Of a DNA stretch of 64,000 nt, positions 21,935 to 39,800 are shown piece after piece; within the stretch, counting starts at the first letter, position 1, and each line of letters begins with the position of its first letter. Source of the stretch: an uncultured Bacteroides sp. (GTDB lineage: Bacteria; Bacteroidota; Bacteroidia; Bacteroidales; Bacteroidaceae); the NCBI GenBank assembly GCA_944322345.1, contig CALUOO010000003.1, forward strand, positions 1 to 64,000, in the 5' to 3' direction. The translations under genes were made by a program, and so were the position numbers. The notes beneath the pieces are model-generated. The model worked only from the letters and a program-made list of their open reading frames with translations, searched no databases and was not told the DNA's origin.

Positions 21935-22873
21935 TTAATCAAGCATTTTCCGTATAGCATCATACGAAGCATCCTTCAGCACCACCCGCTTCTGCCCGTC
22001 CAGCAGATAAAGTGAAGGCATTGCCTTCAGGTCATAAAGTGCCTGTTCCTTTACTATGCCACGGTCGGTAGCTACTATCCACCCAGAAGGCATGTCGGGT
22101 AGCGACTTTCTCCATGTTTCTTCATCACCTTCTGTATAGACTGCCAATACTGTTACCCGCTCTGCTCTCACCGCTTCTTCCAGCTTAGAATCCATAGCCA
22201 TCTGACGCAGTACCTCATGGCACGATTCACACTCCGGATCATAAAATACGACCACCAGTCGGTTGTTAACCGCAGAAGTTTCAGAAAGTGTACACTTTTC
22301 CCCGTCAGGCAGGTAATAACAAAAATCACTCGCTTTTGCACCTACATTGTTACGACCAAGCAATTGCAGCTTAAACTGATAAGTGGCACGATGGACATCA
22401 TTCTCGGGCACTGATCGAAGCATCGCTACCAAATAACAAGCATATAGTTTTTCATTATAATAAGGTGAGGTGGAATTGTACAAATAGCTATCAGCTATTT
22501 TTGAAAGTACCTGACGCGCGTATGTAAATGTAACCAGCCGACTACACCAATGTTGTAAACTCTCTCTCACCAATAACTCCGATGTAGTTTTATCACCAAG
22601 CAAAGCTATAAAATCGACAAATCCCTGTTCGGTGACATTACGGTTGTCTACCAACAACGTATCAGAAAAATCGAACTGGTCCCAATAATGAGACAGCAGA
22701 TAAGCTTTCCGTTCTTCCGACGAGGTCAATGAATCGGGAATAGCAGGAAAAGGAAAATATGGACGGACGATAGCAGAATCCGTCAAATAGTCCGCCGGTT
22801 GAAGCAGGACAGCATGAATATGCCCAACAACCACTCCACACAGAATACAAAACATCAGACAATATTTACTCAT
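21935..22873 (-). CDS. DUF5106 domain protein, thioredoxin-like
   Basis: 312 residues from the ATG at 22873, which starts a signal sequence (KYCLMFCILCGVVVGHIHA); an in-frame ATG 20 codons earlier only adds hydrophobic residues. The N-terminal half has the DUF5106 pattern (YLLSHYWDQFDFSDT, YFKEKL-like helices). The C-terminal half is a TlpA-like thioredoxin fold with VVFYDPECESCHEVL, a CxxC motif (CESC), and the cis-Pro region KAMPSLYLLDG. Probably a periplasmic thiol oxidoreductase. It lies behind the fimbrial operon on the same strand, separated by 286 bp with a palindromic element, so membership of that operon is doubtful. Confidence 0.82.
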   Translation of the reverse strand: MSKYCLMFCILCGVVVGHIHAVLLQPADYLTDSAIVRPYFPFPAIPDSLTSSEERKAYLLSHYWDQFDFSDTLLVDNRNVTEQGFVDFIALLGDKTTSELLVRESLQHWCSRLVTFTYARQVLSKIADSYLYNSTSPYYNEKLYACYLVAMLRSVPENDVHRATYQFKLQLLGRNNVGAKASDFCYYLPDGEKCTLSETSAVNNRLVVVFYDPECESCHEVLRQMAMDSKLEEAVRAERVTVLAVYTEGDEETWRKSLPDMPSGWIVATDRGIVKEQALYDLKAMPSLYLLDGQKRVVLKDASYDAIRKMLD

Positions 22874-23008
22874 AAACAGACTACTAAAAAACAAATACAA
22901 ATTAGCCACAAAACAAACAAAAGACAAAGTCAAAAAAAGAGTGATTCTTATAGGGGGAGTGAATAAAAAAGAGGATTTCTTAAAATGGAAAGTAACAACG
23001 TTTTATCA

Positions 23009-23081
23009 TCCTGAGCAAAGCAAGGAATCCGGGAGCAGCGACTAATACATCCAGATTCTTCACTTTGTTCAGTATGACATG
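23009..23081. repeat. Imperfect palindromic (REP-like) element
   Basis: CATCCTGAGCAAAGCAAGG at the left and, reversed, CATACTGAACAAAGTGAAG at the right form an imperfect inverted repeat of about 26 bp around a 20-bp centre. The wording resembles dispersed intergenic palindromes common in many genomes. It sits between the DUF4906 gene and the DUF5106 gene and may act as a terminator. Confidence 0.55.
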
Positions 23082-23159
23082 CACATTCAATTATACTTTT
23101 CAATCTTAAGAAAGCCCTCATTAAACAAGAGGCCGGTTTGATTCTCTATAAACCGATTA

Positions 23160-25427
23160 TTATTTCTTCGTTGCAAAATCGTTCTTATGATAAACAAGGC
23201 GGACGCGATGCTTGCTGGTACGGTCCTCCAAGCTTTGCACACCGATAATCGAGTTATAGGTATAGGTCTGCGTACCACTCATCGAAGAAGTCCAATAGGG
23301 CACATTACTGATACCGAAACGGACATCCACCACACCATACTGCATAATCTTTTCCCACTCTTTCACAGTGGGCAGACCGATACGTGCCATTTCATTGGCA
23401 TTGTACTTGATACTACCACCAGTGGATGTTACGGCATTTGCCGCACGGAAGAGCGCCGCACCCACCGCATCGTCCGGCTTTCCATGGTCGCCTTGGAAAT
23501 CAAATGCATTCGGATTGGTGCCATATAGAGCTGCAAGCACATCAAAGCCATACTCTGCATTATAAGTGCGTGTTTTACCCTGATAACTTTGGTAGTATGT
23601 CATGGAATTCGGATTCAAATTACTTGCATCCCAATTATCATTGTAAAAGTCCGGTCCCCAAACCATTTCCACACCTTCGTACAGGTCGATACGGCTGTAA
23701 TAGAGCGAAGCATTGTTCGGATCACCTGATATTGGGTTTCCGTTATTGTCCACCATCACCGGCATGGGCAGCCACTGGCGGGCTTCAAGTTCATGAACTA
23801 TCCGTCCTGTAGTTTTGTCTTTCAATATCAGGTGAGCTACACGGTAACCGTTGTTAATCCAATTTGTTATGGTACTAATGTCTCCTTGCGACCATTCCTT
23901 CCAGCTCCCCCATTCATCAATCCACGGTTGGGCAAAGAGCAGAATGTAAGTTACCCCCGGTTCACCACCGCACTGGTCATGAGAGTATAGAGTAGCCGGA
24001 AAAGATTCAGACGGAGTAAACATACCACCCGGTGTCTGAGCCCACAACCAAGGAGCACCATCTACACCTTCTTTACAATAAACAGCATACTGGTGTCCCT
24101 GTTCACCCACGAATCCAATGTATGCCATAGCACCGTTACTTGGCATATTTGTCCCTTCCGTCAGGAACGAACCGCCACCGGTTACACCGCTACTTTCCAC
24201 GCGCCAACTGGCCCCATCACCATCACCTATATAACTCCCATCTTCATAAGTCCTGCCGTCTTCCACCAGTCCCCCCATGCCTTTCAGAGAAAGGGTTACC
24301 TGGTAGTGTTTGTTGCGGTGTACATTAAAGTCGTTTGTAATATTCTCACCCAAATAAAGACGATATTTAATAGGACCGGAGATATATTTCTGATTTTCTC
24401 CCGAAGCAGACGGAACATACAGATAATCCGCTATAACCTCGATGTAACTGCAATATTTTTCCTGACCTTCCTTAGGAGTTTTCTGTATCTGATTTCCATC
24501 TTCCGCCCCATTAGTCCCCTGTAAGTTCTCGAACATAAAGACCGGAACAATATTTGGGTCTGTGCCATGTCCACCAACGGTAGTACCATGGCTTTCGGAG
24601 GTCAAGGCATCCCAACCTACTTGCTGCACCAAACCTTCTTCCCAAATACGGTCGTCTGTTGTAACTTTATTGTCTGTACCGATGTTACAATTCACCGGCA
24701 CATTGTGCAAGCAGATGGATCGCGGGGTTATCTTTACACCCTTATTCAACGCTTCATCGCCCGACCCCGAAGTGATTGCCACCGTAGTCATTGCCGTTGT
24801 ACGTTCCAACATACAGGTATAGTATCGACCGCCGTGAGTGTCTGTTCCAGAGCTTGAGTCTTCTACAGCTTCACCAAACAGGGTAGAAGTCAGGATACCC
24901 GGCTTACGGGGTGTTCCCTGTTGCAAATTTCTTAAATCATTAACAGTGGAAGTACCTACTGTCAAGCACTTGTTCAGATTATTTTTTTCCGGAATAATTT
25001 CTCCTGTGTTTCTATTAACCTGCCAATAGTTGCAGACTATGAATATCTGACTTTTTCCTGACCAAGACTTGCTTCCTACATGATAGGTCAATGTCCCATT
25101 ATCAGCAGGCAAACTTCCGTCAATCAAGCCGTTGTCACCCATCTCCGGATTTGTTGGCTTTGCATTATTCGGCACATAGATAATTTCCCGAATCACCCCA
25201 CCAGCATCCGCCAGCACAATGTTCATATCCTCGATGCGGCTACGGTCGGTACGCTCGGAAGCAGCACGTGTCAGATTCTTGTTGTCCATACCGGCAACGG
25301 AGATAATCAGGTTTACTCCTTCGTTGGAATTGTTGCATGGCATTCCGTCTTCATCGCGAATGCACCCGACCGCCAACCCTCCTGCAAGTAGCAAGGTGGC
25401 CATTATTTTCAATCCATACTTGTTCAT
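23160..25427 (-). CDS. DUF4906 fimbrial-associated lipoprotein (probable tip or accessory subunit)
   Basis: 755 residues. The lipoprotein signal is LLLAGGLAVGCIRDEDG. About 25 residues after the Cys the sequence reads NLTRAASERTDRSRIEDMNIVLAD: an Arg-containing strand of the kind trimmed during type V fimbria assembly, followed by the first beta strand of a fimbrillin-like domain. The rest is beta-rich and ends with a C-type-lectin/formylglycine-enzyme-like stretch (GLPTVKEWEKIMQYG...YWTSSM...HRVRLVYHK). Large proteins of this kind close type V fimbrial operons and are inferred to be tip adhesins. Last gene of the fimbrial operon, 15 bp behind the anchor gene. Confidence 0.8.
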   Translation of the reverse strand: MNKYGLKIMATLLLAGGLAVGCIRDEDGMPCNNSNEGVNLIISVAGMDNKNLTRAASERTDRSRIEDMNIVLADAGGVIREIIYVPNNAKPTNPEMGDNGLIDGSLPADNGTLTYHVGSKSWSGKSQIFIVCNYWQVNRNTGEIIPEKNNLNKCLTVGTSTVNDLRNLQQGTPRKPGILTSTLFGEAVEDSSSGTDTHGGRYYTCMLERTTAMTTVAITSGSGDEALNKGVKITPRSICLHNVPVNCNIGTDNKVTTDDRIWEEGLVQQVGWDALTSESHGTTVGGHGTDPNIVPVFMFENLQGTNGAEDGNQIQKTPKEGQEKYCSYIEVIADYLYVPSASGENQKYISGPIKYRLYLGENITNDFNVHRNKHYQVTLSLKGMGGLVEDGRTYEDGSYIGDGDGASWRVESSGVTGGGSFLTEGTNMPSNGAMAYIGFVGEQGHQYAVYCKEGVDGAPWLWAQTPGGMFTPSESFPATLYSHDQCGGEPGVTYILLFAQPWIDEWGSWKEWSQGDISTITNWINNGYRVAHLILKDKTTGRIVHELEARQWLPMPVMVDNNGNPISGDPNNASLYYSRIDLYEGVEMVWGPDFYNDNWDASNLNPNSMTYYQSYQGKTRTYNAEYGFDVLAALYGTNPNAFDFQGDHGKPDDAVGAALFRAANAVTSTGGSIKYNANEMARIGLPTVKEWEKIMQYGVVDVRFGISNVPYWTSSMSGTQTYTYNSIIGVQSLEDRTSKHRVRLVYHKNDFATKK

Positions 25428-25442
25428 AACTGTCCTCCGTCT

Positions 25443-26372
25443 TTAAAATTCCGGTTTAATATCTTCTATCACCCATTCGGGCACTTCCACAGTAACGCCG
25501 ATAGAGCTGAATTTTATAGAAATTGGCAATAAGGCTTCCTGCTTGGTTACATCAATCTCTCCAGCATTCTGCCGGAGATAATTGTAGATGCTTCCCCGAA
25601 GCAATTCTTCTCCAGTGCGTTTGTCCTTTAGCACAAGAATATGCGAACAAATATCCTGTTCCAATTCACCCTCATGGTCCATTCGGAAGAGTGCACAATC
25701 ATCAGTACGGTAACATTGCCGTTCTTCGTCGTACACCAAATCGGGATAGCAGGTACCCTTTTCTGCCTCGTTGATTTCGTTGTTAAAAGAAGTCTGTGCA
25801 TTCGAGTTCTCAAAACTCAATTCATAAGGTATATCTTCCGCCCTTGTACTTGCCGGTCTTTGCAAACCGAAAATCTCTACTGCCACATCAATGTGTGAGC
25901 TCACCAATGTCACAGTGTCCCTCAAGCGCTGATTGTTGCCAGGCACTTCAATCACCTTTTGTGTCATATAATTGTCATCGTGCCCAGTCACTTTTTTTGA
26001 TGTACCCCAGTTAGGGTGTTGAATATAAATAGTACCAAAATTCTGAGATTCAAGGTTGACTACAGCCGTACGTTCTTTGGCATTGCCCAATGCCACAATC
26101 TTATAACTTCCGGCAGGCAACCTGAACGAAGGAGTGGCCGTAAAGCTTGCCAACTGCTCAGAATCGTAATGCCGTATGCCCATAATACGGTTATTCTCAT
26201 CGAAAACATACAGATCTACCTGATCCATATATTGATATAACACGTCTTTATCACCATCTGCCAGATACTGGAAGTAGATAATGACATTGTCGCAATCTGA
26301 CCAATCGTCTTTTATACAACCTGTGGGCAACAGGCAGATAACCGACAAAAGTACTAATACATAATGTTTCAT
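25443..26372 (-). CDS. FimB/Mfa2 family fimbrial anchor subunit
   Basis: 309 residues. Lipoprotein signal LLSVICLLPTGCIKDDWSDC. The following region (VIIYFQYLADGDKDVLYQYMDQVDLYVFDENNRIMGIRHY) and PSFRLPAGSYKIVALGN are the Mfa2/FimB signature. In Porphyromonas, Mfa2 and FimB anchor the fimbria to the outer membrane and set its length. Sits 139 bp behind the major subunit gene with an imperfect hairpin in the gap, which could lower its expression relative to the major subunit. Confidence 0.9.
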   Translation of the reverse strand: MKHYVLVLLSVICLLPTGCIKDDWSDCDNVIIYFQYLADGDKDVLYQYMDQVDLYVFDENNRIMGIRHYDSEQLASFTATPSFRLPAGSYKIVALGNAKERTAVVNLESQNFGTIYIQHPNWGTSKKVTGHDDNYMTQKVIEVPGNNQRLRDTVTLVSSHIDVAVEIFGLQRPASTRAEDIPYELSFENSNAQTSFNNEINEAEKGTCYPDLVYDEERQCYRTDDCALFRMDHEGELEQDICSHILVLKDKRTGEELLRGSIYNYLRQNAGEIDVTKQEALLPISIKFSSIGVTVEVPEWVIEDIKPEF

Positions 26373-26407
26373 ATTTAATCTGTATATTTATGCTTTACTT
26401 TAAAAGA

Positions 26408-26456
26408 GACAGGGAACAGACTGTAAACCTGTCCGACACGGACGTCTGTCCCTGTC
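26408..26456 (-). promoter_or_regulatory. Imperfect hairpin between major-subunit and anchor genes
   Basis: GACAGGGAACAGAC (26408-26421) and GTCTGTCCCTGTC (26444-26456) form a 13-bp stem with one bulge. No T run follows on the minus strand, so this looks like an RNA-stabilising or partial attenuation structure rather than a full terminator. Confidence 0.5.
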
Positions 26457-26511
26457 CATCTCATTTCCTTATCCCCGAAAAGCAACCGGAGCAACTATTC
26501 TGTTCCGTCTA

Positions 26512-27705
26512 TTACTCAAATACCGGAGTCAAAGCAACGATTTCCCAGTCTGCTACTGTCACTTTTACATTTACACAGATTTCTTCATCCGGATTCCAAG
26601 GTCCTACATTTTCAACTTTAAACTTATAGCTGTCAATTCTGTAAATCTTACCGGCTTCGAAAGCAGTCAAAGGTTGTCCATCCGATGATTTATTGAAGCT
26701 TGCAGTTACCACTGCTCCGAATGGGTCTTTTGTTGTTTCATCCGTATAAGCGTCTACGGCAAGTTTAATCTGGACATTCTTCTTTGATGTAGAGCCAATC
26801 TGTGCAGGAGAGAACTGATAAACATAATAGCCGGCAGCAGGATTATGTATATCATCATTTTTTGCTAACTCAGCACCTATAATCTTATCCCATGCCCAGC
26901 TATAATTAGTATATGTACCATTCTGACTATCTGTTGTTTCACCAAAAATATACTTGCCTTTTACAGCAGTAGATCCCGGTTCCAATACATTGTCAATTGT
27001 CATCTCTTCGCTTGCAGTGCCGCCTAAAGTGAACCGATTATTATAGTCCATCAAACCGATAGCCTCCAATACAATCTTTTTGTATTTACTACCTGTCAAA
27101 TCTTCGCACTGGATTCCCTTTACTTCGAAACGGGAAACAAAAGGAGCCAATGCCACTTCAGCCTTATACAGTAAGTTATGCCCTTCTTGATCGTCGGTAA
27201 TACCATCACCCTCTGTGACAGGTGCAATTTGTGTATCCCCACCAAACAAAATGACATCTCCGAAATCCTGTTCGCCAGCTATCTGCAAAGCTTGATTTTT
27301 TACAGCAGAAATATTTGTCGTATTAGGTGTTACAGCTGGCAAATTTTTACCTTCTGCATTTCCAACTACATACACCTGTTCCACAGAGTTAGGGATACTA
27401 TGGAAAAGATGCCCTGCAGTACCTATAGTAGCCCAATCATCAGCATCGTCATTCAAGGTCTCTGTCTTTTTAATAACACCTGTTGCATCAGTAAAATACA
27501 CGGTAAAATTCGTCAGAGCAATCTGTCCTGCTGTTTTGCCTTCTTCCACTGCACGACCGGAAACACCGGAAGACAGCCCTTCGAACTTCAGATACATGCT
27601 CTTTGTTCCATCATTGCTTACACCAGAAGTCAAATCTTCTTCGTTACTACATGCGGCAAAAGCCAATCCCGCTAATCCCAGCATAAAGAATTTGTTCATT
27701 TTCAT
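26512..27705 (-). CDS. Mfa1-like fimbrial major subunit
   Basis: 397 residues. Lipoprotein signal LGLAGLAFAACSNEED, then a pro-segment containing GRAVEEGKTAGQ, a basic site suitable for proteolytic trimming that would free the donor-strand groove. The remainder is beta-rich with the Mfa1 layout (LTNFTVYFTDATG, HSIPNSVEQVYVVGNAEG, YYVYQFSPAQIG) and ends in a C-terminal strand (VKVTVADWEIVALTPVFE) expected to act in strand exchange. Type V fimbriae are assembled outside the cell from such lipoprotein precursors. A G/C-rich hairpin sits in its leader at 27751-27769. Two starts (27705 and 27699) are possible. Confidence 0.88.
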   Translation of the reverse strand: MKMNKFFMLGLAGLAFAACSNEEDLTSGVSNDGTKSMYLKFEGLSSGVSGRAVEEGKTAGQIALTNFTVYFTDATGVIKKTETLNDDADDWATIGTAGHLFHSIPNSVEQVYVVGNAEGKNLPAVTPNTTNISAVKNQALQIAGEQDFGDVILFGGDTQIAPVTEGDGITDDQEGHNLLYKAEVALAPFVSRFEVKGIQCEDLTGSKYKKIVLEAIGLMDYNNRFTLGGTASEEMTIDNVLEPGSTAVKGKYIFGETTDSQNGTYTNYSWAWDKIIGAELAKNDDIHNPAAGYYVYQFSPAQIGSTSKKNVQIKLAVDAYTDETTKDPFGAVVTASFNKSSDGQPLTAFEAGKIYRIDSYKFKVENVGPWNPDEEICVNVKVTVADWEIVALTPVFE

Positions 27706-27750
27706 AATTAAAATAAATTTAGTTAATGTATAAATATAGATTTCATCCCA

Positions 27751-27769
27751 AAGGGGGGATAATCCCCTT
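27751..27769 (-). promoter_or_regulatory. Hairpin in the leader of the major-subunit gene
   Basis: AAGGGG (27751-27756) with CCCCTT (27764-27769), or GGGGAT/ATCCCC within it, in otherwise A/T-rich sequence 46 bp ahead of the start codon. A 12-bp inverted repeat (27809-27820 with 27884-27895) lies further upstream in the same 208-bp gap. Both could favour separate accumulation of the major-subunit mRNA. Confidence 0.5.
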
Positions 27770-27913
27770 ACAGAATTTTTTCTGATACCTAGTTGCAGAG
27801 GAAGACAAACAGAGTTTCACGAGAACCGATCGGGCAAAAAACAGGGGAACTAGGGGAATAAAAAAAGCCTTTACTTTTCCTCTGTGAAACTCTGTATTCT
27901 CTTCGATAAGATT

Positions 27914-29368
27914 CTATTCCAACAATTCCATTGCCTTCCGGCACATGTCCAAATTTCCAGCAGCTCCGGCATATCCTGCCTCCTTCGCCTTATTGAACGC
28001 AACGGCGGCTTCCTTCCGCTGCCCGTTCTTGAAATAGGCAACGCCCAGCAGGTTGAGCAGAGCACCCTCTTTGGTTCCTTCCAGCAAGGCAATAGCTTCG
28101 CGGTAATGTCCAGTCTCTATCTCGGCAAGAGCAGCGTTGTTGCGTGCCGCCAAATTGTCCGGATAAGTACGCACTGCTATTTGCAGCGCCTCGCGGTAAG
28201 CATCGCTGTTACGTCCATAACTGTCTGCCACTTTTTGTATTTCGGCTACACTGAGATGTTCGGGGCGCGACTTCAAAAGCTGACGTGCTTCCCCGAGGTC
28301 AAAGTGACGCACGTTATATTCTATACGATATTCGTTACGACGCAACGGTCCGTACATTTCATTCAGTAACCGCTGGTAGATTTCCGGAGGAACCAATGCC
28401 TTGATTTTCTCTTCGCAGGCATCCTGATCGCCCGTACATCCATCAATAATTGCCAGCACCTCATCTATTTTCAACAGTTTAGGATGTTTCAACACTTCGG
28501 CACGCAGTCCGTCCCAATCCTCCCCTTTCCAGTTTACATGCCACAAATTGCGGTCCAGCTCGGGATTCTGTTCCTGAACATATTGGGTAAACTTCTGCGC
28601 ACGCCGTTTAGACAGCTCCATATTATACGCTACAGTAGCTTCCGGTGACGCATACCCGGTGACGAAAATACCAGTAATAGTAAGGTTTTTATCCTCTTTC
28701 ACCGCATCAACAGAAGCCTGCACCTTTGCCAATTCCTCGCGGTTATTTTTGTATTCAGGTAACACGTTGTGGCTGTCCTGCCGGTATTGCAGACGGGCAG
28801 TCTTCACCTCCGAACGACGTTTTACAGTCTCTTCCTGTGGTTTCATCACAGGTGTCATAACAAACCGGGGCTCTTCGTAAGGTAATACCGTACCAGTGAT
28901 CAAATTCTCGTCACCTTCATCACACGAAGCACATCCGGTAGTATATCCTCTCAGCTCCATACGGCTGTTTACCATCCATGTCTGAAAAGGAATCTCAGCA
29001 GAATAGTGCAACGACTGTTTTTGGCCATTCTTCCGTCGTAAGCGGACATCATAATCTGCCCAGCCTGTTTCGCCAAGACTTTCTTGTCTGCGCGTCACCT
29101 TATCTCTGATCTTTCCGTTAATAAGTACGGGCTCAAGTGCTTGCTGCTGTATACCATCAGCAGAGACCAACGTAGGAACAAGTTTCAGCGAATGCTGTCT
29201 TTTCATATCAAGATCATCAAGATTGATATCCATCTGAACCTTCACCGCTTTTCCCACCTTCTCTACACTGCGATTCTCTACTTTTATATTCTCCAAATAA
29301 TATGTCTGTGCAAAGGCAAACGGGCATGCAGCCAATAGCCATGCAACGAGTATTTGTCTCTTTTTCAT
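27914..29368 (-). CDS. DUF3868 protein, OmpA-like and TPR regions (fimbrial operon)
   Basis: 484 residues with a signal peptide (LVAWLLAACPFAFA). The N-terminal domain (YYLENIKVENRSVEKVGKAV...) is DUF3868. The middle carries an OmpA-like segment (ITGIFVTGYASPEATVAYNMELSKRRAQ), which usually contacts peptidoglycan, and the C-terminus has TPR-like helices (ARNNAALAEIETGHYREAIALLEG). Such proteins commonly accompany DUF3575 barrels in Bacteroides fimbrial operons and may form a periplasmic scaffold. It lies 18 bp behind the DUF3575 gene. Confidence 0.85.
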   Translation of the reverse strand: MKKRQILVAWLLAACPFAFAQTYYLENIKVENRSVEKVGKAVKVQMDINLDDLDMKRQHSLKLVPTLVSADGIQQQALEPVLINGKIRDKVTRRQESLGETGWADYDVRLRRKNGQKQSLHYSAEIPFQTWMVNSRMELRGYTTGCASCDEGDENLITGTVLPYEEPRFVMTPVMKPQEETVKRRSEVKTARLQYRQDSHNVLPEYKNNREELAKVQASVDAVKEDKNLTITGIFVTGYASPEATVAYNMELSKRRAQKFTQYVQEQNPELDRNLWHVNWKGEDWDGLRAEVLKHPKLLKIDEVLAIIDGCTGDQDACEEKIKALVPPEIYQRLLNEMYGPLRRNEYRIEYNVRHFDLGEARQLLKSRPEHLSVAEIQKVADSYGRNSDAYREALQIAVRTYPDNLAARNNAALAEIETGHYREAIALLEGTKEGALLNLLGVAYFKNGQRKEAAVAFNKAKEAGYAGAAGNLDMCRKAMELLE

Positions 29369-29386
29369 ATCGCTCTTCCCTCCTAC

Positions 29387-29950
29387 TTATTTAATAATGT
29401 ATATCAGTGATACGGCAGCCTTGGTCACACCTAAATAGTTTTTATCGCCATCACCTTTCCATTCACCACAACGCGGACAGTCGTAACGATCGTAATGTGC
29501 CCGCACATAACCTACGCCCAACTCAGCTTCGATGCTCCATCGGTTTCCCAACAGCCACTGATATCCATAACCTACACCTGCTCCGTAGTAAAATCCTTCG
29601 TAGCGGTGTTTTTCCAATCCTTCGTAAATACCAAAGGGAAAATCAATGCCTCCTACATTATACTGTCCGCCCAACAAGTGTAATCCCAGGAAATGGCCGT
29701 TGAAACGTTCGCAAAACCAATAACGCGCTTCGGGTTGTGCCATCCAGTGTTTCCACTTCTTATTTTCGTTAAATGTCCATCCATTATAATTCCCGGACAG
29801 ATCTAACGTCCATTTTGGCGACAGCCCGATTTCTGCACCCAAATTAACAGTAGCTGTTGCATCGTACAGCAGATTGGTCTTTACCGCCACTTTTGGGGCA
29901 GACAAAGAGAGGCTGACAAGCAGCAATAAAAAAATCAGATTTCGTTTCAT
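29387..29950 (-). CDS. DUF3575 outer-membrane barrel protein, first gene of the fimbrial operon
   Basis: 187 residues. Signal peptide LIFLLLLVSLSLSAPKV, then the DUF3575 opening VAVKTNLLYDATATVNLGAEIGL and alternating beta strands with many aromatic residues (GFYYGAGVGYGYQW, AAVSLIYIIK end), as in small outer membrane barrels. A CPRCGEW segment near residue 160 is notable. Nothing resembling a promoter lies between its start and the inverted repeat at 30017, so expression should depend on the invertible segment. Confidence 0.85.
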   Translation of the reverse strand: MKRNLIFLLLLVSLSLSAPKVAVKTNLLYDATATVNLGAEIGLSPKWTLDLSGNYNGWTFNENKKWKHWMAQPEARYWFCERFNGHFLGLHLLGGQYNVGGIDFPFGIYEGLEKHRYEGFYYGAGVGYGYQWLLGNRWSIEAELGVGYVRAHYDRYDCPRCGEWKGDGDKNYLGVTKAAVSLIYIIK

Positions 29951-30158
29951 GATTCTTAGTATTTATAGCACTACTTGATAGTAGTTGTTGTTCATTCTCA
30001 CCCCATTCTAAAACCATTACTTTGTAGGTAACAGGAATACTGTCGTTGAAAATATATTTGCAAAGTGCTTTGAGTAGAAATCTTGTATTGAAACTGTATA
30101 TTCTTTTTATAGGAGGAAAAGTTGCTCAATTTTTATTCTATCCTTCTTTATTATGTAC

Positions 30159-30250
30159 GAGATGTACATCTCGGCATACATGAGATGTGCATCTTGGCAT
30201 GCATGAGATGTACATCTTGGTATGTACAACATGCACATCTCGTACATACC
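30159..30250. repeat. Tandem array of 23-bp units with palindromic core, inside the invertible segment
   Basis: Four units starting at 30159, 30182, 30205 and 30228. Core GAGATGTACATCTC in unit 1 is a perfect 14-bp palindrome; units 2-4 vary by a few bases. Same period as the array at 5624-5842 but a different sequence. Confidence 0.85.
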
Positions 30251-30597
30251 AAGATTCCTATACCTAAAAAACATCGTTTATTAGAAAAAAAAAGAATAAA
30301 AGCGAGAGGACAAATCATATATATATACAAGGATCAGGTCAACCTCCATTCGAATGAGGATGAAAACGTCCTGCAGTTGCTTTTATGCTCAAAGAACTGT
30401 CATTTTATTATCTAAAACCCCAAGAATAATCTTATGTAAATAAATTAGGAAATATTTAAATCGATTTTATTGTGCTTATTGTAACAAAAAGATACATCGT
30501 ATCATATAAATAATTAGCTGACAAATATTTGAATTAAATGCTTGAATCGATTTCCGATTTTCTTTTTTGTTAAAACCTAAATTTTTTCTGTGTTTCT

Positions 30598-30629
30598 TTT
30601 GTTTGTTTAATAAAACATTTCTAATTTTG
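30598..30629 (+). promoter_or_regulatory. Invertible promoter, pointing away from the fimbrial operon
   Basis: TTTG (30598-30601), 20-bp spacer, TAATTTTG (30622-30629). It lies just inside the right inverted repeat. As sequenced it would transcribe rightward, antisense to the recombinase gene; after inversion it would drive the fimbrial genes. Confidence 0.7.
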
Positions 30630-30762
30630 TCAGAAACAAAGTTACCGTTACCTACAAAGTAAAAGAGTAGTTTTGTATTATCTTTTCCCCCCTTTTCCTT
30701 TCACTAGCTATCAGGACTATTTCTTAAAATCTTAGTCTCTATTTTAGATTTCCCGCAAAGTA

Positions 30763-31632
30763 TTAATGTATCCCAACAAGAATATCAGAAATTATTTCAC
30801 GATTCATCTGCCCAATTTGTTCATCAGTATGCCTTTTGAAATATGTCTCTGTTACCCGAACAGAGGAGTGTCCCATTGCATTAGAAATCAACTCCTGCTG
30901 ATAATTACGATAGTTAGCAATAGTCGCCCAACTATGGCGTGCACAATAGCTACTTAGAGAACAGGGAATATCTGCAAAAACAGCCAGCCTCTTTAGCAAC
31001 GCATTAAACCTCCTCAAAGCATTTCTATATTGCCTATAAGCCTCGTTGCCTACCTTATTTATATATGGAAACAGATAGGGAGATGTCGTATCCCTGCTTT
31101 TCAGCTTTTCTATCAGCCTCATTGCTTGCGGTAATACCTCTACTGTCAGCCAGCTTCCAGTCTTTCGACGACGATAGGTAAGCACATTCCCTTTAAGATC
31201 ACACTTCCGTAAGTAAGCAATATCGACAAAAGGAATGCCACGTAACATAAATAAAAGAAGAAACAGCATCCGTGCTTTATCCATCGGACAGTTTTGTTTT
31301 ACCTGTAAACCGTATAGCCGTTGTAATGTCTGCTCATCTATCGCCCGTTTCACAGTGATTCGCGTACCTGTATATACACCCTTGAAAAGCCGTGGGCGAT
31401 AAACCGCCAGCCCAACATCCACTGCACGAAAATAAACGGCACGCAGCATCCTCATGTAAGTAGAAATTGTATTCCAATGCAACTGCCTTCCAAGCAAATA
31501 ATTCTGAAAAGCTTTTAGCCATAAGGGAGTAATATCGTCCAAATGGGCAGAAGTACCTGCCATAAAGTTTTTTACTCGATTAAGCATACTCTCATACACA
31601 TGGGCAGTACCCAAACGTCCCTCTTCTTTCAT
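30763..31632 (-). CDS. Tyrosine site-specific recombinase (putative DNA invertase), N-terminus interrupted by a stop codon
   Basis: 289 residues from the first ATG after an amber codon. A SAM-like core-binding domain (TPLWLKAFQNYLL...NTISTYMRMLRAVYFRAVD) precedes the catalytic domain: R of LLRGIPFVDIAYL, K of RRRKTGSWLTV, SSYCARHSWAT with its Arg, and GHSSVRVTETYFKRH with His and the nucleophile Tyr. This is the Bacteroidetes family that often flips promoters. Upstream in the same frame, an ATG at 31683 begins MKQRINLDMYAACII, then TAG (31636-31638), then Q and this ATG, so the natural protein probably started at 31683 with CAG in place of TAG. Relatives usually carry about 15-20 residues here. 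Activity of the shortened form is uncertain. Confidence 0.85.
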   Translation of the reverse strand: MKEEGRLGTAHVYESMLNRVKNFMAGTSAHLDDITPLWLKAFQNYLLGRQLHWNTISTYMRMLRAVYFRAVDVGLAVYRPRLFKGVYTGTRITVKRAIDEQTLQRLYGLQVKQNCPMDKARMLFLLLFMLRGIPFVDIAYLRKCDLKGNVLTYRRRKTGSWLTVEVLPQAMRLIEKLKSRDTTSPYLFPYINKVGNEAYRQYRNALRRFNALLKRLAVFADIPCSLSSYCARHSWATIANYRNYQQELISNAMGHSSVRVTETYFKRHTDEQIGQMNREIISDILVGIH

Positions 31633-31926
31633 CTGCTAGATAATACAAGCAGCATACATGTCCAAATTGATTCTTTGTTTCATCTAAATATTCCAGTTTT
31701 TTATTTGTAGTTATTTCTTTACTCTGACTAAAAAATTACAAACTAATAACTTTAACTTATTTAAAGTTTATCATTATATTGTTTTTGATTTTATTTTTCT
31801 GTTTTTATCAAATACATAATAAATCGTACAACTAAAAACAGAGAGACGAGATATCGGACATTGCACAAAAACTAAACTTTCGTGCATTAAAAGCACATCC
31901 TATTCAAGATTTATCTATCTTTGCGC

Positions 31927-32006
31927 CCGATTTTAAACAAGCGGTCCAGCAATGTGCCCGAGAAAGTGATAAAATCATGCATACCTTTTTCCAACCTTAA
32001 AATCGG
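31927..32006 (+). promoter_or_regulatory. Structured leader of the carboxylase operon
   Basis: CCGATTTTAA (31927-31936) is exactly complementary to TTAAAATCGG (31997-32006), closing a loop of 60 nt that contains a further TGAT/ATCA stem. A TATCTTTG box at 31916-31923 lies just before it, though without a good -33 box. Transcription from there would include the structure in the mRNA leader. It does not match the cobalamin riboswitch features I know. The rest of the gap (31684-31926) is A/T-rich with nothing recognisable. Confidence 0.45.
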
Positions 32007-32096
32007 CAGATGCCATGTTTCCTGCAGCAGACAAAATTGCCTGAAGAAGGAAATACACATATAAAATATTATGTATTGCACCTAATTGAGTAAATT

Positions 32097-33611
32097 ATGA
32101 TAAAAAAAATCTTAGTAGCCAATCGTGGTGAAATTGCCGTAAGGGTAATGCGTTCTTGTAGAGAAATGGGAATCACAAGCATTGCCATATTTTCAGAAGC
32201 AGACCGTACCGCGAAACATGTGCTATATGCAGATGAAGCCTATTGCATAGGACCTGCTGCATCGAAAGAAAGTTATCTGAATATTGAAAAAATTATTGAA
32301 GTAGCGAAAACCGCTCATGCAGATGCTATCCACCCGGGATATGGTTTTTTATCAGAAAATGCAACTTTTGCACGCCGTTGCCAAGAAGAAGGGATTATTT
32401 TCATAGGTCCTGATCCAGAAACAATGGAAGCAATGGGAGATAAAATCTCAGCACGTATCAAGATGATTGATGCCGGAGTACCTGTTGTTCCCGGGACTCA
32501 AGAAAATCTAAAAAGTGTTGAAGAAGCCATCGAACTCTGTAATCAGATTGGCTATCCTGTAATGCTGAAAGCATCTATGGGAGGTGGAGGAAAAGGTATG
32601 CGTCTTATCCACTCCCCCGAAGAAGTAGAAGAAGCCTATACTACCGCAAAAAGCGAGTCACTCTCTTCATTTGGTGACGATACTGTCTATCTGGAAAAAT
32701 TTGTAGAAGAGCCTCACCACATTGAGTTCCAAATCTTAGGCGACAAACATGGAAATGTCATTCATCTTTGTGAACGTGAATGCTCCGTACAACGGAGAAA
32801 CCAGAAGATTGTGGAAGAAACTCCCTCTGTATTCGTTACTCCCGAATTACGCAAGGATATGGGTGAGAAAGCTGTAGCCGCAGCCAAAGCCGTCAACTAC
32901 ATTGGCGCAGGAACTATCGAATTCCTTGTAGATAAACACCGCAACTACTATTTTCTTGAGATGAATACCCGCCTGCAAGTTGAGCACCCTATTACAGAAG
33001 AAGTAATTGGAGTGGATCTGGTAAAAGAACAAATCAAAATAGCCGACGGTCAGGTATTGCAACTTAAACAAGAAGACATCAAGCAACGAGGACATGCCAT
33101 CGAATGCCGTATCTGTGCTGAAGATACTGAAATGAATTTTATGCCCAGCCCAGGAATCATCAAACAGATTACAGAGCCCAACGGAATCGGTGTACGTATT
33201 GACAGCTACGTTTACGAAGGATATGAAATTCCTATCTACTACGATCCGATGATTGGAAAACTGATTGTATGGGCTACCAACCGTAAATATGCCATCGAAC
33301 GTATGCGCCGTGTGCTACACGAATATAAACTGACAGGAGTGAAGAACAATATTAGCTACCTGCGTGCCATTATGGATACACCCGACTTTGTAGAAGGACA
33401 CTACGACACCGGATTCATTGCCAAAAACGGAGAGTACTTGCGAGAATGCATCACACGTACCAGCGAGCGTGCCGAAAACATCGCGCTGATTGCCGCATAC
33501 ATGGACTATCTGATGAATCTGGAAGAGAACAACAGTGGTACCGCGACCGATAATCGTCCTATCAGTAAATGGAAAGAATTCGGATTACATAAAGGAGTAT
33601 TGCGTATTTGA
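32097..33611 (+). CDS. accC: Acyl-CoA carboxylase, biotin carboxylase subunit
   Basis: 504 residues. Full biotin carboxylase architecture: N-terminal ILVANRGEIAVRVMRSCREMG, HPGYGFLSENA, the ATP-grasp glycine loop KASMGGGGKGMR, the EFQILGD...RECSVQRRNQK segment, and the C-terminal domain with GHAIECRICAED. It carboxylates biotin on the carrier protein using ATP and bicarbonate. With the carrier and carboxyltransferase genes behind it, it forms a complete three-gene acyl-CoA carboxylase, most likely for propionyl-CoA/methylmalonyl-CoA in propionate metabolism. Symbol given by family; acetyl-CoA as substrate cannot be excluded. Confidence 0.9.
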   Translation: MIKKILVANRGEIAVRVMRSCREMGITSIAIFSEADRTAKHVLYADEAYCIGPAASKESYLNIEKIIEVAKTAHADAIHPGYGFLSENATFARRCQEEGIIFIGPDPETMEAMGDKISARIKMIDAGVPVVPGTQENLKSVEEAIELCNQIGYPVMLKASMGGGGKGMRLIHSPEEVEEAYTTAKSESLSSFGDDTVYLEKFVEEPHHIEFQILGDKHGNVIHLCERECSVQRRNQKIVEETPSVFVTPELRKDMGEKAVAAAKAVNYIGAGTIEFLVDKHRNYYFLEMNTRLQVEHPITEEVIGVDLVKEQIKIADGQVLQLKQEDIKQRGHAIECRICAEDTEMNFMPSPGIIKQITEPNGIGVRIDSYVYEGYEIPIYYDPMIGKLIVWATNRKYAIERMRRVLHEYKLTGVKNNISYLRAIMDTPDFVEGHYDTGFIAKNGEYLRECITRTSERAENIALIAAYMDYLMNLEENNSGTATDNRPISKWKEFGLHKGVLRI

Positions 33612-39398: not shown

Positions 39399-39405
39399 AT
39401 GAATG

Positions 39406-39800
39406 TGGAGCTGGAGGGAATCGAACCCTCGTCCAAACGAGGAAATCATAAGCTTTCTACATGCTTATCTTTGCCTAAATTTTCGTGCTGAAACAGAACC
39501 AAAGCCATCAATTTCAACCTTATCCTTTAAAAATTTCATTGGAAATACAAGGCTATCTCCAACTATCTCCGATATAACTGCACCACTTGACCGGAATGCT
39601 TCGGAGCAACAGCTTCCGAGTGATGTCTCGTCCTGACACCTTGTGTCTGGATTAAGCTAATCTACTGTACTTCGATTAAGCAGCAAGAGCGTAGTTTGTT
39701 TCGCCAGATAATCTTTTGATAACTGAGATTTAAGTGGAAATTACCGACCCACTGCATGCTTACTTACCATTTCTACCCGCTGTCAAATCCAGTCAACCCC
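39406..39800 (-). ncRNA. ssrA: tmRNA (transfer-messenger RNA)
   Basis: About 395 nt. The 5' end GGGGTTG (39800 downward) pairs with CAGCTCC at the 3' end (39407-39413) as a 7-bp acceptor stem, and the T arm reads GGTTCGATTCC. The TTTGACAGCGGG motif follows the 5' end. The tag frame ends GGC GAA ACA AAC TAC GCT CTT GCT GCT TAA, giving GETNYALAA, the known Bacteroides tag. CCA is not encoded. It rescues stalled ribosomes and tags their products for proteolysis. A TATCTTTG box at 39836-39843 is the likely promoter -7 element, implying 5' processing. Confidence 0.97.

What the first reader, a model, noticed from the sequence alone, without database searches (positions are those of the whole stretch)
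30017..30662. Invertible promoter switch controlling a type V fimbrial operon, caught in the OFF orientation
Perfect 16-bp inverted repeats (30017-30032 and 30647-30662) bracket a 646-bp segment between a fimbrial operon and a tyrosine recombinase gene. The only full consensus promoter in the segment (30598-30629) points away from the operon, and no TAnnTTTG box faces the operon on the present left side or in the 67 bp outside the left arm. Flipping would put the promoter about 93 nt ahead of the first fimbrial gene. Invertible promoters upstream of surface genes are well known in Bacteroides; this element is inferred from sequence alone.
Basis: partly seen in the sequence, partly recalled or inferred. 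Interest (0 to 1): 0.85.

Follow-up and report, generated by a model that had tools for sequence, protein, structure and literature searches.

The report
Flippable pilus promoter, recombinase gene truncated
A 646-base DNA segment with mirror-image 16-base ends sits in front of a predicted pilus operon in a Bacteroides-group bacterium and carries a promoter-like sequence pointing away from that operon; flipping it would likely switch the pili on, but the recombinase gene beside it has an early stop codon in this genome, so the switch is likely slow, stuck, or dependent on a second recombinase.

Summary
In detail: perfect 16-bp inverted repeats (30017-30032, 30647-30662) bracket a segment whose only full Bacteroides-type promoter (30599-30629) points away from a predicted type V fimbrial operon. 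Comparison makes a switch very likely: 15 further loci have the same cassette; of the 16, the promoter scores best at the operon-distal end in 12, at the operon-proximal end in 3, and 1 ties. In one close pair of genomes (flanks 96-98% identical), one assembly has both flanks ending on the last base of the 22-bp arms, as mixed orientations would give. The kind is known: tyrosine-recombinase promoter inversion in Bacteroidales, fimbrial genes included; this repeat sequence is in print. An element on another contig has the same 16 bp beside an intact recombinase (51% identical). So here the switch is likely stuck or slow in OFF, or inverted in trans; neither was tested.

The parts
30017..30032 (+). 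left inverted-repeat arm; site anatomy ATTAC-tttgtag-GTAAC counting one base outside the 16-bp match
30647..30662 (-). right inverted-repeat arm; TTTAC-tttgtag-GTAAC read on the - strand counting one base outside the 16-bp match
30017..30662 (.). 646-bp predicted invertible promoter element, present orientation OFF
   Evidence: corresponding elements in 15 further loci
30599..30629 (+). Bacteroides-type promoter TTG-N20-TAATTTTG, 17 bp inside the right arm, pointing away from the fimbrial operon
   Evidence: -7 consensus TANNTTTGY from PMC12632263 (passage)
30153..30255 (.). internally palindromic dispersed repeat inside the element (similar sequence at G000:C1:276827 and in several other genomes); strong predicted hairpin
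30763..31632 (-). tyrosine recombinase, 289-aa open frame from ATG codon 18; catalytic domain present (PF00589, PF13102)
31633..31683 (-). 5' end of the recombinase gene (codons 1-17), cut off from the rest by an in-frame TAG at codon 16 (31636-31638)
29387..29950 (-). first fimbrial-operon gene, DUF3575 protein
   Evidence: PF12099, 5.8e-80
27914..29368 (-). DUF3868/OmpA protein of the operon
26512..27705 (-). likely stalk pilin (Mfa1-like; NF038041 below its curated cut-off, no Pfam hit)
   Evidence: 46.9 bits against a cut-off of 130
25443..26372 (-). Mfa2-type anchor pilin
   Evidence: PF08842, 6.1e-31
23160..25427 (-). likely tip pilin, DUF4906 (role inferred)
   Evidence: PF16249
21935..22933 (-). 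DUF5106/thioredoxin-like protein, read in the same direction; operon membership inferred

Best explanation
The segment 30017-30662 is very likely an invertible promoter switch of the known Bacteroidales tyrosine-recombinase kind for the predicted fimbrial operon 21935-29950, it lies here with its promoter pointing away from the operon (OFF), and the recombinase gene beside it carries an in-frame stop codon, so in this strain it is likely stuck or slow unless another recombinase acts on it. Mechanism: a tyrosine recombinase would cut within the 7-bp spacer (tttgtag) between the half-sites of the two arms and re-join them inverted, which would move the TTG-N20-TAATTTTG promoter to about 93 nt ahead of the first fimbrial gene (ON). 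Shown: repeats, promoter position, stop codon, the cassette in 15 further loci, and promoters at either end among them. Inferred: inversion itself, transcription, and the effect of the truncation. The likeliest residual source of inversion is the intact recombinase on contig C4, whose own element has the same 16 bp, or restart of translation at the ATG just after the stop; neither is tested.
For: Repeats and promoter. Cassette: 16 distinct loci including the window carry GTTAC-N7-GTAAC-type arms 38-89 bp from the fimbrial ATG (one distance after setting masked bases aside), elements 303-1031 bp. Both ends used: one search scores 12 OFF, 3 ON (L083, L085, L089), 1 tie (L088, ON by eye). Assembly evidence: G064 contigs C39 and C4 both end on the last base of the 22-bp arms, with flanks 96.3% and 98.4% identical to G071 where the element is whole; searching G064 with that element found only the arms. 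Truncation: TAG at codon 16; 13 of 15 cassettes examined have an open gene; intact 306-aa protein P0001, 2 differences in 289 residues; the lost residues match most of helix 8-21 in the model of the L085 recombinase (mean pLDDT 87.6). Sibling site: C4:95554/95840 shares all 16 bp beside an open 313-aa recombinase, 51% identical. Precedents seen as passages: one recombinase for a local and a distant promoter (PMC4747536); defective neighbour recombinase whose promoter still inverts (PMC13114119).
Against: No read data: no change of orientation was seen in this strain, and the window contig runs through both arms. Both outer half-sites of the window depart from GTTAC (ATTAC, TTTAC), while both are GTTAC in 12 of the other 14 loci tabulated, so the site may be weakened. 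Promoter calls rest on short motifs: shuffles of the same composition reached the better score in 0 to 16% of 200 trials per cassette. No element scored ON aligned in inverted sense to one scored OFF. The break in G064 could have another cause; in G084 a second element 97.6% identical explains a similar break. The TAG could be a sequencing error, or the truncated protein may work.
Confidence: 0.85

Rival explanations
1. The switch is live in this strain, turned in trans by the intact recombinase on contig C4, which has the same 16-bp site in front of a 973-aa predicted surface protein; pili and that protein would then share one inverter. (This and the next two concern this strain only and are compatible with the main explanation.)
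For: Identical 16 bp and spacer; C4 recombinase open, 313 aa, 51% identical. The capsule-type element on C8 has no recombinase that I could see among ORFs of at least 100 aa in the 14 kb read, and the only PF13102 hit on C8 is 98 kb away, so trans action is plausible in this genome (other recombinase families were not searched). Precedents PMC4747536 and PMC13114119 (passages).
Against: The C4 recombinase groups with a surface-protein-linked one of G022, apart from the group of 15 that holds 14 fimbria-linked ones (the window's included) and L058; outer half-sites of the window differ from those of C4; no inversion data.
Confidence: 0.35
2. The truncated recombinase is still made from the ATG just after the stop and works well enough to flip the element.
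For: Open frame of 289 aa from that ATG; the conserved columns of the catalytic domain are kept; a methionine is at this place in the intact L085 recombinase too.
Against: The lost part covers most of the first helix in the model of the L085 recombinase; the 13 intact cassette-linked recombinases all have it.
Confidence: 0.25
3. The element is a frozen remnant: recombinase truncated, outer half-sites drifting, operon permanently OFF in this lineage.
For: Stop codon; both outer half-sites off consensus; a parallel case, L089 (Caecibacteroides pullorum by matching contig length), has an internal deletion in the recombinase, promoter ON, and no further site within one mismatch.
Against: The arms are still 16 of 16 complementary, the fimbrial genes are open, and an intact recombinase 99% identical exists, so any freezing is recent.
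Confidence: 0.35
4. Not a switch: chance or structural repeats near a fimbrial operon with a fixed promoter elsewhere.
For: No direct inversion data in this strain; the loosest control is not strong.
Against: Mean 0.025 such perfect repeats per simulated window; same site type in 15 further loci with promoters at either end.
Confidence: 0.04

Closest known systems
Phase-variable fimbrial/outer-surface locus of Bacteroides fragilis, tyrosine recombinases (Weinacht 2004, known here only as cited in PMC12632263, passages; original not held)
   Same: Tyrosine recombinase, phase-variable locus with a fimbrial-type gene
   Different: Recombinase of the window is truncated; site sequences could not be compared
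GTTACTTTGTAGGTAACGGA repeat by an integrase in B. xylanisolvens, and CCGTTACCTABVRAGTAAC repeats at B. thetaiotaomicron surface-protein and OmpA-family loci (PMC12118408, passages)
   Same: All 16 arm bases of the window lie within the 20-bp B. xylanisolvens repeat
   Different: Reported there around a 280-bp region without a named target; no fimbriae are mentioned in that paper (0 occurrences); element here 646 bp
BF2766/Tsr19 of B. fragilis (PMC4747536, abstract and passages)
   Same: Tyrosine recombinase; one enzyme for a local and a distant promoter is the model considered here
   Different: There proven by deletion; here only suggested by a shared site
Polysaccharide promoter of Phocaeicola vulgatus with a defective neighbour recombinase (PMC13114119, passages)
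   Same: Linked recombinase carries internal stops; another recombinase presumed
   Different: Polysaccharide target, promoter mostly ON; inversion shown by PCR
Inverton groups near fimbrillin family genes in the hCom2 community (PMC11892184, passages and section 7)
   Same: Fimbrillin genes enriched in regulatable position near invertons
   Different: Statistical survey; groups not matched to this site here

Membership tests
Bacteroidales tyrosine-recombinase invertible promoter | Near-perfect inverted repeats bracketing a short segment | tested here: met
   16/16 bp, 646 bp
Bacteroidales tyrosine-recombinase invertible promoter | Outward-facing promoter of Bacteroides type near one end of the segment | tested here: met
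   TTG-N20-TAATTTTG 17 bp inside the right arm; shuffles reached the score in 1% of 200 trials
Bacteroidales tyrosine-recombinase invertible promoter | Surface-structure gene starting just outside one arm | tested here: met
   ATG of the first fimbrial gene 66 bp outside the left arm
Bacteroidales tyrosine-recombinase invertible promoter | Both orientations occur among relatives | tested here: met
   Of 16 loci 12 OFF, 3 ON, 1 tie by motif score; across species, not within this strain, and without an inverted alignment of one ON to one OFF element
Bacteroidales tyrosine-recombinase invertible promoter | Inversion within one strain or species | not testable with these tools
   No reads; one assembly break at both arms in a relative is indirect
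Bacteroidales tyrosine-recombinase invertible promoter | Linked, intact recombinase gene (usual, not required) | tested here: not met
   In-frame TAG at codon 16
Tyrosine recombinase | Phage_integrase catalytic domain with its conserved residues | tested here: met
   PF00589 32.4 bits over cut-off 27.1; alignments; the model of the L085 recombinase matches Xer, Cre and lambda integrase chains (49 at E up to 0.001) at modest TM-scores of about 0.3-0.5
Type V fimbrial operon | Mfa2-type anchor pilin | tested here: met
   PF08842, 6.1e-31
Type V fimbrial operon | Stalk pilin of the FimA/Mfa1 family | tested here: inconclusive
   NF038041 at 46.9 bits, under its cut-off 130; no Pfam hit
Mpi-type serine invertase switch | Serine recombinase beside the element | tested here: not met
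   Adjacent recombinase is of the tyrosine type

The most novel reading that the evidence does not exclude
Two surface programmes are wired to one inverter: having lost its own recombinase, the pilus switch is run in trans by the recombinase of a distant surface-protein switch with the identical 16-bp site, so pili and that surface protein are flipped by the same enzyme; and recombinase loss is a recurrent way in which lineages fix pili OFF (window) or ON (Caecibacteroides pullorum).
Probability: 0.25. Interest if true: 0.55.

Novelty: new member of a known kind. Interest (0 to 1): 0.36.

Why it matters
Invertible promoters for surface structures, fimbriae included, are established in gut Bacteroidales, so the switch itself is ordinary. 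The use lies in a natural experiment: a conserved pilus cassette whose linked recombinase is open in 13 of 15 loci examined and broken in 2, one with the promoter OFF and one ON. That makes testable whether losing the local recombinase fixes the state or hands it to a recombinase elsewhere with the same site.

Tried and rejected
Chance repeat: rejected (15 further loci). G084 contig breaks at an arm as evidence of mixed orientation: rejected, because a second locus in that genome carries an element 97.6% identical over 336 bp. Direct inverted alignment between an ON and an OFF element: none found; the listed blastn matches were all plus/plus, all but one among elements scored OFF, the other a weak one between the C4 element (ON) and L088 (tie). 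Sequence of the same locus in viral contigs: no match to the left junction. Intrinsic terminators in 29900-32150: none found against 1.1 expected. PDB relatives of the 973-aa protein on C4: none by sequence. NCBIfam model for the recombinase: none over its cut-off. TATATTTG at 30053-30060 and TAGTTTTG at 30668-30675 were not counted as promoters, lacking by eye a TTG at the usual spacing. A genus-wide count of broken recombinases was not obtained (tool busy).

Full report
OBSERVATION. The arms are perfect and at the given coordinates. One perfect 16-bp inverted repeat pair at 100-1000 bp spacing was found in the 64-kb window, against a mean of 0.025 in 40 simulated sequences; with 3 mismatches allowed, 8 of 100 shuffles reached the 2 matches of the window. 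The best promoter match is TTG-N20-TAATTTTG at 30599-30629 (9 of 9 scored positions), pointing right; the operon is on the - strand to the left, its first ATG 66 bp outside the left arm. The -7 consensus used is that of PMC12632263 (passage). A flip would leave 99 nt between the -7 box and the ATG.

TARGET. Reading leftwards: DUF3575, DUF3868/OmpA, a protein resembling Mfa1 below the curated cut-off, Mfa2 anchor, DUF4906, and a DUF5106/thioredoxin protein. This is a predicted type V fimbrial operon by its anchor and gene order; the stalk and tip assignments are inferred.

RELATIVES. A DNA search of 149 genomes of the genus (86 with any match) and a protein-guided scan of named genomes (24 loci) led to 64 fetched loci with a DUF3575 relative; with the window that is 65 rows, some of them the same locus twice. 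Only the better part of the hits was fetched (40 stretches). In 19 of the 65 rows a GTTAC-N7-GTAAC-type arm pair lies just upstream; setting duplicates aside (15 distinct) and adding L031, whose pair shows, gives 16 distinct loci including the window; two of them (L032, L033) are contigs of one genome. 7 of the 65 rows have only another kind of repeat of 14 bp or more, in L040, L114, L116 and L118 of a TCTCT..AGAGA type, with more distant recombinases in L114 and L118. Rows with short upstream sequence (L026, L030/L084, L036, L048, L112) could not show a pair; L026 and L030/L084 show one arm. The collections hold one genome per species, so orientation could not be compared within this species.

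ORIENTATION. Scoring TTG-N18-22-TAnnTTTG near each end of the 16 elements gave 12 with the better score at the operon-distal end (OFF: window, L080, L081, L082, L031, L032, L033, L087, L091, L095, L097, L102), 3 at the operon-proximal end (ON: L083, L085, L089) and one tie (L088, which by eye is ON). The two nearest kin of the window's recombinase, L085 and L088 (support 93/97, not starred), are an ON and the tied one, while the window is OFF. Shuffles of the same composition reached the better score in 0 to 16% of 200 trials, so single calls are not all strong. No ON element aligned inverted to an OFF one. In the close pair G071/G064 (flanks 98.4% and 96.3% identical), G071 holds the element whole, while both G064 contigs end on the last base of the 22-bp arm and a search of G064 with the element found only the arms. 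A 22-bp repeat alone should not break an assembly with longer words, so mixed orientation is the likely reason; this is inference.

RECOMBINASE. The frame continues upstream through a TAG at codon 16 to an ATG at 31683 that matches the start of the relatives. Of 15 cassettes whose recombinase was examined, 13 have an open gene of 301-361 aa (the start of the longest, L031, is uncertain, and L102 is only 44% identical and falls outside the main group), the window has the stop and L089 an internal deletion; the recombinase of L087 lies on another contig and was not examined. P0001, 306 aa, has 2 differences in the 289 residues and is uninterrupted (5 member sequences, 10 contigs; source column shown as '-'), so intact copies exist in the same or a very near species. 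In the AlphaFold2 model of the L085 recombinase (mean pLDDT 87.6, pTM 0.75) the missing part corresponds to residues 1-18, most of the first helix 8-21. The catalytic half is kept. The model's nearest solved structures are Xer-type recombinases, at TM-scores of about 0.3-0.5.

OTHER SWITCHES IN THIS GENOME. The same 16 bp bracket a 302-bp element on C4, ON by score, between a 313-aa recombinase and a 973-aa predicted surface protein. Related sites bracket elements before NusG-family (UpxY-like by context) capsule-type genes on C5, beside a recombinase, and on C8, with no recombinase seen among the ORFs in the 14 kb read. The C4 recombinase is 51% identical to the window's and groups with a surface-protein-linked one in G022 (97/92). 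The shared site makes action in trans possible; the off-consensus outer half-sites of the window (ATTAC, TTTAC) may lower it, though the C8 element has ATTAC on both sides. A scan of 15 genomes for the 17-bp site within one mismatch found matches in 12; besides the window's genome, G022 and G084 have two elements each.

MECHANISM. Tyrosine recombination in the 7-bp spacer would invert the element and join the promoter to the operon. A further inference from geometry alone: in the OFF state the promoter would read into the 3' end of the recombinase gene in antisense, 100 bp outside the right arm, with no terminator-like site found between; this could damp the recombinase in OFF cells, but nothing here tests it.

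LITERATURE. Six searches. Read as passages: PMC12118408, PMC12632263, PMC4747536, PMC13114119, PMC11892184 (30, with section 7 in 57), PMC10939037. Phase-variable fimbriae of B. fragilis (Weinacht 2004, as cited in PMC12632263) and fimbrillin genes near invertons (PMC11892184) make the kind known; the repeat GTTACTTTGTAGGTAACGGA, which contains the window's 16 bp, is printed for B. xylanisolvens (PMC12118408). A defective neighbour recombinase with continued inversion is reported for P. vulgatus (PMC13114119). In these searches I did not see this fimbrial cassette with this site described, but the library lacks most subscription papers.

VERDICT. An ordinary Bacteroidales promoter switch for pili, correctly spotted, with one twist: its own recombinase gene is cut short in this genome.

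Noticed in passing
L009:7554-7857 (G000:C4:95553-95856): A second element with the same 16-bp arms, promoter ON by score toward a 973-aa predicted surface protein, beside an open 313-aa recombinase.
   Followed up: partly
L010:6944-7207 (G000:C8:28943-29206): Invertible-promoter-like element before a NusG-family capsule-type gene, promoter OFF by score, with no recombinase seen among the ORFs in the 14 kb read.
   Followed up: partly
L120:4192-4746 (G000:C5): Capsule-type element by a recombinase; promoter-like sequences score equally at both ends.
   Followed up: partly
window 30153-30255: Dispersed palindromic repeat (GAGATGTACATCTC type) inside the element; similar sequence at G000:C1:276827 and in several other genomes; predicted hairpin with z-score -5.2 (30110-30270, - strand).
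   Followed up: partly
L089 (Caecibacteroides pullorum by matching contig length): Cassette-linked recombinase with a large internal deletion; promoter ON by score; no other site within one mismatch in that genome.
   Followed up: partly
L157:4374-5750 (G022:C8): A 1377-bp element with the same site that contains its recombinase gene inside, before a 990-aa surface-type protein.
   Followed up: no
L156 and L087 (G084): Two loci led by DUF3575 proteins in one genome carry elements 97.6% identical with the same site.
   Followed up: partly
L040, L114, L116, L118: DUF3575 loci with a different repeat class (TCTCT..AGAGA); in L114 and L118 it goes with a more distant recombinase.
   Followed up: no
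window 39405-39800: tmRNA gene, tag GETNYALAA.
   Followed up: no
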